Shown here piece after piece: positions 921-3,728 of a stretch of 10,145 nt of DNA. Position 1 is the first letter of the stretch. Each line of letters opens with the position of its first letter. Under the pieces are notes generated by a model, which saw only the letters and a list, made by a program, of their open reading frames with translations, had not been told where the DNA came from and did no database searches. The stretch spans positions 1 to 10,145 of the forward strand of contig JACPOX010000069.1 of NCBI GenBank assembly GCA_016191305.1, read 5' to 3'. The position numbers were made by a program, and so were the translations under genes. The DNA is from Legionella longbeachae. Its GTDB lineage: Bacteria; Pseudomonadota; Gammaproteobacteria; Legionellales; Legionellaceae.

Positions 921-3725
921 TTAGTGTTCTTGATTATCTGCGTTTAATGCTTCACTTAACGCATGCTCAACATCACTTGCAGTAACAGTATGCACTGAGT
1001 GCTCACCAGCTGCAGCCTTAGCTCTTTTTGCCTTACGGCTTTGATGATATGCATAACCAGTTCCTGCGGGAATCAAGCGTCCAACCATCACATTTTCTTT
1101 TAAACCACGTAAATCATCGATTTTGCCACTTACAGCAGCTTCTGTTAAAACTCTTGTAGTTTCCTGGAACGATGCAGCAGAAATAAATGACTCTGTAGCC
1201 AAAGATGCTTTAGTAATACCCAATAATATAGGTGTGCCTCTAGCTATTTGCTTTCCTTCAGCATTAAGTCTGTCATTTTCTTGCAATAATACACTTTCTT
1301 CTATCTGTTCCCCTACCAGGAATTTTGAATCTCCTGCAAAAGTAATAACTCGTTTACGTAGCATTTGTCTAACAATTGTTTCTATATGTTTGTCATTAAT
1401 TTTTACACCTTGTAATCGATATACATCTTGTACTTCGTTTACGATGTAGTTTGCCAATGCACCAACACCAAGTAAGCGTAAGATATCATGTGGATTGAGC
1501 GCTCCTTCAGCGATAAGTTCACCTCGCTCAACATGCTCTCCTTCGAAAACAGATATATGACGCCATTTTGGAATCAACTCTTCATGACATTGATCTTCAG
1601 AAACATTAATAATTAATCTTCTCTTACCTTTTGTTTCTTTACCAAAATTAACTAAACCGGAAACTTCAGCCATCACCGCTGAATCTTTAGGTTTACGTGC
1701 TTCAAATAAGTCAGCAACCCTAGGTAGTCCCCCTGTAATATCGCGGGTTTTGGAGCGTTCTTGAGGTATACGTGCAATAACGTCTCCAATACCTACATGA
1801 CCTCCATCTTCAAAATTAACGATAGCATCAACCGGTAGATAATATTGTGCAGGAACGTTGGTACCTGCAAGATATATATCATCACCATTTTCATTGACCA
1901 GTTTTACCATAGGTCGCATATCTCGACCTACACTACTTCGTTGTTTTGCATCAATAATTACGATATTACTTAAGCCTGTTAATTCATCAGTTTGTCGATT
2001 CATGGTTAAACCTTCAATCAAATCAACAAATTTCAAACAACCACTCACTTCTGAAATCACCGGATGGGTATGAGGATCCCAAGTTGCAATAACTTGTCCT
2101 GCTTCAACAGCTGAATTATCTTGAGCTGAGATCACAGCACCATATGGTAATTTATAACGCTCACGCTCACGGCCAAACTCATCCACAATGGTGACTTCTC
2201 CGGAACGTGATACTGCAACTAAATTTTTATTTTCATGAGTTACTGTTTTAATATTATGTAAACGAATAACCCCTTTGGTCTTGATTTGAATATTATTTGC
2301 TGCAGTTGCTCTAGATGCAGCTCCACCAATGTGGAAGGTACGCATAGTTAACTGAGTACCAGGTTCACCAATCGATTGAGCTGCAATAATACCTACTGCT
2401 TCACCTGTGTTAACGAGATGACCTCTTGCTAGATCACGACCATAACATTTAGCACATAAGCCGAAGCGGGTTAGACAGGTAATAGGTGAGCGAACCAATA
2501 TTTGATCCACACCTTGTTTTTCTAACTTTTCAACCCATTCTTCATCCAATAATGTACCTGCTGTAACAACAGGTTCACTTTGGTTAGGTATGTAAACATC
2601 AGCAGCTACAACACGACCTAATACGCGCTCATGTAATGGTTCAACGATATCACCACCTTCAATCAATGGCTGCATCAAGACTCCAGTAGCTACACCACAA
2701 TCATCTTCGGTAATTACTACATCTTGTGCCACATCAACCAAGCGGCGTGTTAAGTACCCTGAGTTAGCTGTTTTTAGAGCGGTATCCGCCAAACCTTTTC
2801 GCGCACCGTGAGTTGAAATAAAGTATTGAAATACATTTAGACCTTCACGGAAGTTAGCGGTAATAGGAGTTTCAATAATTGAACCATCAGGAGCTGCCAT
2901 CAATCCACGCATACCTGCCAACTGTCTTATTTGTGCAGCAGAACCTCTTGCACCAGAGTCAGCCATCATAAATATGGGGTTAAATGATTCCTGTCTTACC
3001 AAATTACCTTTGACATCAGTAACCTCTTCAGTTGCAATCTTAGTCATCATTGACTTAGCAACCAATTCATTTGTTCTAGACCAGATATCAATTACTTTGT
3101 TATATCGTTCACCGTTAGTCACTAAACCAGAACGGAATTGCGATTCAATTTCTCGCACTTCATTATCAGCATGCTCAATAATATTCGCTTTATCATCAGG
3201 TATTTCCATATCTTCAATACCTATAGATACACCCGAACGTGTTGCATACTTAAAGCCAGTATACATTAGCTTATCAGCAAAAATTACAGTTTCTTTCAGA
3301 CCAAAAGTTCTATAACACGTATCAATAACTTTAGTGATTAATTTTTTAGTCATAGTACGGTTTATTTGTGTAAAAGGCATACCTTTGGGTAGAATCTCAG
3401 CAAGAATTGCGCGTCCTACTGTTGTTTCTACTAAATGATGACCTACAGCATCACCGTCCTTAGGCATTCTTATTTTAATTTTTGCATGAACATCAAGATG
3501 TCCTGACTCATAAAAGTTCTGGGCTTCTTGTGCACTAACAAAAATCTTGCCTTCACCTAGAGCATTAACTTTCTCACGTGTTAAGTAGTACAAACCAAGT
3601 ACAACGTCCTGACTAGGAACAATGATTGGTTCGCCACTTGCAGGAGATAAAATATTGTTCGTGGACATCATTAAAGAACGAGCTTCTAATTGTGCCTCTA
3701 AAGTCAATGGCACGTGAACTGCCAT
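921..3725 (-). CDS. rpoC: RpoC C-terminal fragment (bridge helix, trigger loop, second zinc site)
   Basis: The 934-residue frame begins MAVHVPLTLEAQLEAR, the residues that directly follow NADFDGDQ in intact beta'. The ATG is therefore probably an internal methionine (E. coli Met466), not a natural start; no good Shine-Dalgarno sequence precedes it. Visible parts in order are the secondary-channel region with MADSGARGSAAQIRQLAG, the bridge helix around YFISTHGARKGLADTALK, the second zinc site Cys343, Cys417, Cys424 and Cys427, and the trigger loop with Met461, Arg462 and His465 in QLTMRTFHIGGAAS. The spacings between these cysteines match E. coli Cys814, 888, 895 and 898. The C-terminal clamp region follows and the frame ends in TAA at 921-923. 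Without the missing segment this part has no catalytic aspartates. It could only be made separately by reinitiation at the overlap with the N-terminal frame. Confidence 0.9.
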   Translation of the reverse strand: MAVHVPLTLEAQLEARSLMMSTNNILSPASGEPIIVPSQDVVLGLYYLTREKVNALGEGKIFVSAQEAQNFYESGHLDVHAKIKIRMPKDGDAVGHHLVETTVGRAILAEILPKGMPFTQINRTMTKKLITKVIDTCYRTFGLKETVIFADKLMYTGFKYATRSGVSIGIEDMEIPDDKANIIEHADNEVREIESQFRSGLVTNGERYNKVIDIWSRTNELVAKSMMTKIATEEVTDVKGNLVRQESFNPIFMMADSGARGSAAQIRQLAGMRGLMAAPDGSIIETPITANFREGLNVFQYFISTHGARKGLADTALKTANSGYLTRRLVDVAQDVVITEDDCGVATGVLMQPLIEGGDIVEPLHERVLGRVVAADVYIPNQSEPVVTAGTLLDEEWVEKLEKQGVDQILVRSPITCLTRFGLCAKCYGRDLARGHLVNTGEAVGIIAAQSIGEPGTQLTMRTFHIGGAASRATAANNIQIKTKGVIRLHNIKTVTHENKNLVAVSRSGEVTIVDEFGRERERYKLPYGAVISAQDNSAVEAGQVIATWDPHTHPVISEVSGCLKFVDLIEGLTMNRQTDELTGLSNIVIIDAKQRSSVGRDMRPMVKLVNENGDDIYLAGTNVPAQYYLPVDAIVNFEDGGHVGIGDVIARIPQERSKTRDITGGLPRVADLFEARKPKDSAVMAEVSGLVNFGKETKGKRRLIINVSEDQCHEELIPKWRHISVFEGEHVERGELIAEGALNPHDILRLLGVGALANYIVNEVQDVYRLQGVKINDKHIETIVRQMLRKRVITFAGDSKFLVGEQIEESVLLQENDRLNAEGKQIARGTPILLGITKASLATESFISAASFQETTRVLTEAAVSGKIDDLRGLKENVMVGRLIPAGTGYAYHQSRKAKRAKAAAGEHSVHTVTASDVEHALSEALNADNQEH

Positions 3726-3728
3726 CGT
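3704..3728 (-). other. rpoC deletion junction and frame overlap
   Basis: Read on the minus strand the junction is GTTGAACG followed by ATGGCAGTTCAC. GAACG ends the conserved KKMVER segment, with the third base of the Arg codon ambiguous, and ATGGCAGTTCAC begins MAVH, 62 codons later in the family. The loss is therefore 187 nt or another value that is 1 modulo 3. Only very short shared sequence could have existed at the two ends, and it cannot be assessed without the missing bases. The N-terminal frame runs on to TGA at 3704-3706. Confidence 0.85.

What the first reader, a model, noticed from the sequence alone, without database searches (positions are those of the whole stretch)
3704..3728. 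rpoC lacks the catalytic NADFDGD segment: ~187-nt deletion with frame loss
Seen: the N-terminal frame is conserved up to KKMVER, the C-terminal frame resumes at MAVHVPLT, and they differ in phase by 2 nt. Known: in intact beta' 62 residues lie between (E. coli 404-465), including Asp460, Asp462 and Asp464 that bind the catalytic Mg2+. Inferred: 3x62+1 = 187 nt are missing. No frameshifting, bypass or reinitiation could supply these residues. In an essential single-copy gene this should be lethal, so an assembly or consensus error is the leading explanation; a second rpoC or a mixed population are alternatives.
Basis: partly seen in the sequence, partly recalled or inferred. Interest (0 to 1): 0.75.

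Follow-up and report, generated by a model that had tools for sequence, protein, structure and literature searches.

The report
Assembly gap in RNA polymerase gene
In this draft Legionella genome the gene for the largest RNA polymerase subunit lacks 187 bases that carry the catalytic site, and because ribosomal-protein and other core genes of the same assembly show the same kind of clean gap, it is most likely an assembly error and not biology.

Summary
rpoC (minus strand) is broken between bases 3726 and 3725, and in 81 of 81 loci that align on both sides exactly 187 more bases lie there, encoding the NADFDGD catalytic motif. The stretch is not found elsewhere in the held assembly. The same protein search finds it in 35 of 38 kin genomes, and no kin genome shows a second rpoC.

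The decisive evidence lies outside the window. In 38 other readable contigs of the same assembly, eleven more conserved genes lack clean internal pieces of 24 to 339 nt. They include the genes for ribosomal proteins L5, S5, L16 and S13, SmpB and dihydrolipoyl dehydrogenase (names). Together with rpoC that is 12 of 114 genes scored. Comparing two kin genomes with each other gave no loss in 80 and 79 genes. The losses ignore reading frame (5 of 12 are multiples of three), and their junctions look as blunt as random joins.

Best reading: blunt local assembly errors in a draft, scaffolded genome. Raw reads were not available, so the step that made them is inferred.

The parts
3704..4987 (-). N-terminal part of rpoC, open frame of 427 aa from the first start codon; its last codons after the junction are out of frame
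921..3725 (-). C-terminal part of rpoC, open frame of 934 aa; its first Met is an internal residue of intact beta' (E. coli 466)
3725..3726 (-). Junction where 187 nt present in 81 of 81 two-sided kin loci are missing

Best explanation
The rpoC gene of this contig lacks 187 nt that every two-sided related locus has, and this is most likely a local assembly error that joined two correct stretches bluntly across sequence that was left out. Shown: the exact size; that the searches find the stretch in no other held contig; and eleven further clean losses in conserved genes of the same assembly. Inferred: that the living cell has one intact rpoC, and that the joins were made in silico (assembler or scaffolder) and not in the DNA. 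The contigs hold short runs of N of varying length that look like scaffold gaps; joins made without N are the likely source of the clean losses.
For: 81 of 81 two-sided loci differ by exactly 187 nt. The stretch is missed in G000 by protein, DNA and Pfam profile, while the protein query finds it in 35 of 38 kin genomes. 12 of 114 genes scored against kin G023 have a clean internal loss, rpoC included. rpsE and rplE have no whole copy in G000, but one in each of the 13 same-genus genomes that match, of 14 searched. Controls G018 vs G023: 0 junctions in 80 genes; reverse: 1 gain and no loss in 79. Fisher without rpoC, losses of 100 nt or more: 6 of 113 vs 0 of 80, p 0.043. Sizes ignore frame: 5 of 12 are multiples of three. 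Junction ambiguity averages 1.6 nt in 11 losses vs 1.46 in 3000 simulated blunt joins. 16 N runs of 12-76 nt lie in the sample. Chen et al. 2020 (PMC7111523, passages only) describe local errors of metagenome assemblies that lack read support and put incorrect gene sequences into databases.
Against: No reads were available, so lack of read support is not shown. The assembly is 81.68% complete, so a second copy could lie in the missing part. Where four N gaps could be compared with kin, the N length was too long in three and too short in one, so estimated gaps alone do not explain losses without N. The less conserved losers (SDR, permease, DegP-like, bioC, C12 ORF) could be natural decay. The own sample compared with G018 gave no junction in 21 genes.
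Confidence: 0.93

Rival explanations
1. The loss is in the sequenced molecules but not in the cell: a chimera from whole-genome amplification or library preparation, carried into the contig where coverage was thin.
For: Many scattered losses across the assembly; draft of 323 contigs. How the sample was prepared is unknown.
Against: No inverted piece was seen in the sample, and the junctions show no more shared bases than random blunt joins. Amplification chimeras are mostly inverted and primed at short shared sequences (recalled, not checked in a paper).
Confidence: 0.2
2. A real deletion in a redundant copy, with a second intact rpoC in the part of the genome that is not in the assembly, or a deletion carried by some cells of a mixed population.
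For: The assembly is 81.68% complete; a mixed population cannot be excluded without reads.
Against: 35 of 38 kin genomes have exactly one rpoC match and 3 have none. The same kind of loss in rplE, rpsE, rplP, rpsM and smpB would need the same excuse many times over.
Confidence: 0.015
3. The assembler dropped the stretch because it is unusually conserved and tangled with the same gene of co-occurring species.
For: The encoded 62 residues are identical in the 22 same-genus genomes that match.
Against: At DNA level the stretch is average: mean pairwise identity 0.823 against 0.826 overall, rank 2177 of 3710 windows, in 19 Legionella loci.
Confidence: 0.03

Closest known systems
RpoC (RNA polymerase beta'), Legionella
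   Same: Place in the rplJ-rplL-rpoB-rpoC-rpsL-rpsG gene order of the window, domains on both sides of the break, about 95% identity of the C-part to the nearest named Legionella proteins
   Different: Lacks the 187 nt with the NADFDGD motif and is broken into two frames
Local assembly error of metagenome assemblies (Chen et al. 2020, PMC7111523, passages read)
   Same: Incorrect gene sequence in a draft; several places in one genome; scaffolds with N gaps
   Different: The defining test, absence of read support, could not be made here
Naturally split rpoC (rpoC1/rpoC2 of cyanobacteria, recalled)
   Same: beta' in two pieces
   Different: In the natural split no conserved segment is lost (recalled); here the catalytic one is missing

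Membership tests
Functional RpoC (beta') | NADFDGD motif with the three metal-binding aspartates | tested here: not met
   Motif missing in the contig, with no match elsewhere in G000
Functional RpoC (beta') | One open frame of about 1400 codons | tested here: not met
   Two frames of 427 and 934 aa; the 35 matching kin genomes have open frames of 1381-1438 aa without stops
Functional RpoC (beta') | Rpb1 domains 1, 3, 4 and 5 | tested here: met
Split rpoC (rpoC1/rpoC2) | The two halves jointly hold all conserved segments | tested here: not met
   Domain 2 is cut after position 54 of 166 in the N-part, with only positions 142-165 resuming on the other side
Local assembly error | No read supports the junction | not testable with these tools
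   Reads are not held
Local assembly error | Similar breaks elsewhere in the same assembly and not in controls | tested here: met
   12 of 114 genes; losses in controls 0 of 80 and 0 of 79 and 0 of 46

The most novel reading that the evidence does not exclude
The gaps are real: this Legionella lineage carries scattered 24-339 nt losses in its core genes, the RNA polymerase catalytic site and ribosomal proteins included, and lives by restoring the missing pieces at DNA or RNA level or with help from its host.
Probability: 0.005. Interest if true: 0.95.

Novelty: not a real feature. Interest (0 to 1): 0.06.

Why it matters
As biology it does not. As a warning it does: in this genome, rated 82% complete and 1% contaminated, 12 of 114 sampled conserved genes have a clean internal loss, which those two scores do not show. 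Missing catalytic residues, split genes or pseudogenes read from such a draft would mislead.

Tried and rejected
Second rpoC or displaced segment: sought in G000 by protein, DNA and Pfam profile; none found. The weak PF00623 match on C29 (15.7 bits) lies in an intact hemA frame.

The same split in other assemblies: among the 120 best fragments listed for the N-part (8000 candidates scored), none has the N side followed within 25 residues by the C side. Several fragments end near there by ordinary frame breaks or contig ends; P0113 only begins at the same internal Met.

Conserved-stretch collapse: not supported. Inverted joins: none. Shared bases at junctions: as in random joins (the null was drawn from five gene pairs on C37 only). 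Overlap at N gaps: one exact 10-base overlap in 16; the repeat finder showed no copy at the two N gaps examined.

Rows dropped or set aside; of 249 queries with a hit in G000, 114 were scored; the others were under 60% identity or fell on a place already covered. Pieces under 45% identity were ignored; genes under 75% identity or 60 columns were left out; a 4-aa loss and a 4-aa gain were not counted. Of its nine stop rows (own vs G023), five belong to the rpoC, rpsL and rpsE frames, three lie before the presumed start in two other genes, and one (C29) was not printed but falls over the intact hemA frame. The three stop rows of own vs G018 lie before a presumed start. The -1 junction on C3 and the two junctions at N runs are not counted as losses. 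rplE was not's junction list, because its first piece is too short for that search; it comes. smpB was not fitted. bioC fits 140 or 142, and SDR 330 or 339, by method. One search had an anchor one base off for rpoC (it gave 188); redid it (187). An earlier count said 34 of 38 kin genomes; the answer shows 35.

Papers: two searches. Only passages of PMC7111523 were read.

Full report
What is there. The window is the whole of contig C67 of a 2.48 Mb draft in 323 contigs, 81.68% complete and 1.06% contaminated. Its nearest named relatives are Legionella. On the minus strand it reads rplJ (cut by the contig end), rplL, rpoB, rpoC, rpsL and rpsG (cut by the other end). The other genes are open; rpoC is in two frames, with the break between 3726 and 3725.

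Size and content of the loss. A 700-nt query across the junction was compared with 104 loci. 81 align on both sides, and in all 81 exactly 187 nt lie between the halves; 16 gave one side only or are the window itself, and 7 gave no hit. The 81 are Legionella, Pseudomonas and other gammaproteobacteria, some records being held twice. The lost stretch encodes the 62 residues before residue 466 of E. coli beta', NADFDGD included. It is found in 35 of 38 kin genomes at E 1.1e-30 or better; the exceptions are G003, G028 (chance match only) and G036.

Is the piece elsewhere? In G000 the 62-residue query has no candidate, the 187-nt kin DNA has only matches of 14-32 bases, and PF00623 rings on the two halves and once, weakly, in an intact hemA. 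The N-part query finds one place. Each of the 35 matching kin genomes has one rpoC.

Is rpoC alone? I took up to 20 kb of each of contigs C1-C40 (C20 and C39 read wholly N, leaving 38) and compared them, with the window, against open frames of 1.6 Mb of kin G023 and 0.4 Mb of kin G018. Of 114 genes scored at 60% identity or more against G023, ten show a junction between pieces. Two are at runs of N, one is a single-base shift and seven are losses of 100 nt or more: rpoC 187, rpsE 142, bioC 140-142, a DegP-like gene 155, an ORF on C12 233, an amino-acid permease 119 and an SDR gene 330-339. rplE, minus 142, showed as a missing N-end far from a contig end and was confirmed by DNA. Inside otherwise collinear alignments four clean in-frame losses appear: rplP 9 aa, rpsM 8 aa, lpd 19 aa beside its redox cysteines (role recalled) and smpB 25 aa. 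All twelve genes are among the 114 scored. rpsE and rplE have no whole copy in G000; of 14 same-genus genomes searched, 13 have one.

Controls. G018 against G023: 0 junctions in 80 genes; the reverse: one gain of 26 nt and no loss in 79. Gaps of 4 aa or more inside alignments: no loss and one gain in 46 control genes, against five losses and one gain in 76 genes of the sample. Against G018 the own sample gave no junction in 21 genes. Fisher's test without rpoC, losses of 100 nt or more: 6 of 113 against 0 of 80, p 0.043; against both control directions pooled, which are not independent, p 0.005. The four in-frame losses and rplE are not in that test.

What made it. The losses fall in core genes at conserved residues, 5 of 12 sizes are multiples of three (4 expected by chance), no piece is inverted, and junction ambiguity is that of random blunt joins (mean 1.6 nt in 11 losses against 1.46 simulated). 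The rpoC stretch is not unusual in DNA conservation. The sample holds 16 runs of N of 12-76 nt; runs of N in the kin stretches are of another kind (three blocks of 2500-7500), so I take the short ones as scaffold gaps. Where kin allowed a check (4 of 16) the N length did not match the kin gap. Selection in a living cell would not leave such a pattern; blunt in-silico joins across unassembled sequence would. Chen et al. 2020 (PMC7111523; passages read) describe local errors and scaffolding errors and say that they put incorrect gene sequences into databases. Which program step did it is inferred, not shown. The near-equal size of three losses hints at a constant of the method.

Verdict. It is an artefact of a draft assembly and ordinary as biology.

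Noticed in passing
L151 (G000:C37), near 4643, 6076, 8257 and 10714: Four ribosomal-protein genes on one contig (rplP, rplE, rpsE, rpsM) have clean internal losses of 27, 142, 142 and 24 nt; two of the sizes are equal.
   Followed up: partly
L139 (G000:C25) near 2469; L136 (G000:C22) 575-973: lpd lacks 19 aa beside its redox cysteines and smpB lacks 25 aa, both in frame, so gene callers would pass them as whole.
   Followed up: partly
38 readable sampled contigs of G000: Sixteen short N runs of 12-76 nt, probably scaffold gaps with wrong estimated lengths.
   Followed up: partly
G003 (same genus, 87% complete): No match for rpoC, rpsE or rplE, probably because the whole region is missing from that draft.
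   Followed up: no
P0139, P0142, P0155, P0181, P0203, P0224, P0240: RpoC fragments of 413-462 aa on long contigs (66 kb to 6.3 Mb) whose ends look like frame breaks soon before or after KKMVER; broken rpoC entries are common in public assemblies.
   Followed up: no
L117 (G000:C3) 13764: A single-base frame shift in an otherwise collinear gene.
   Followed up: no
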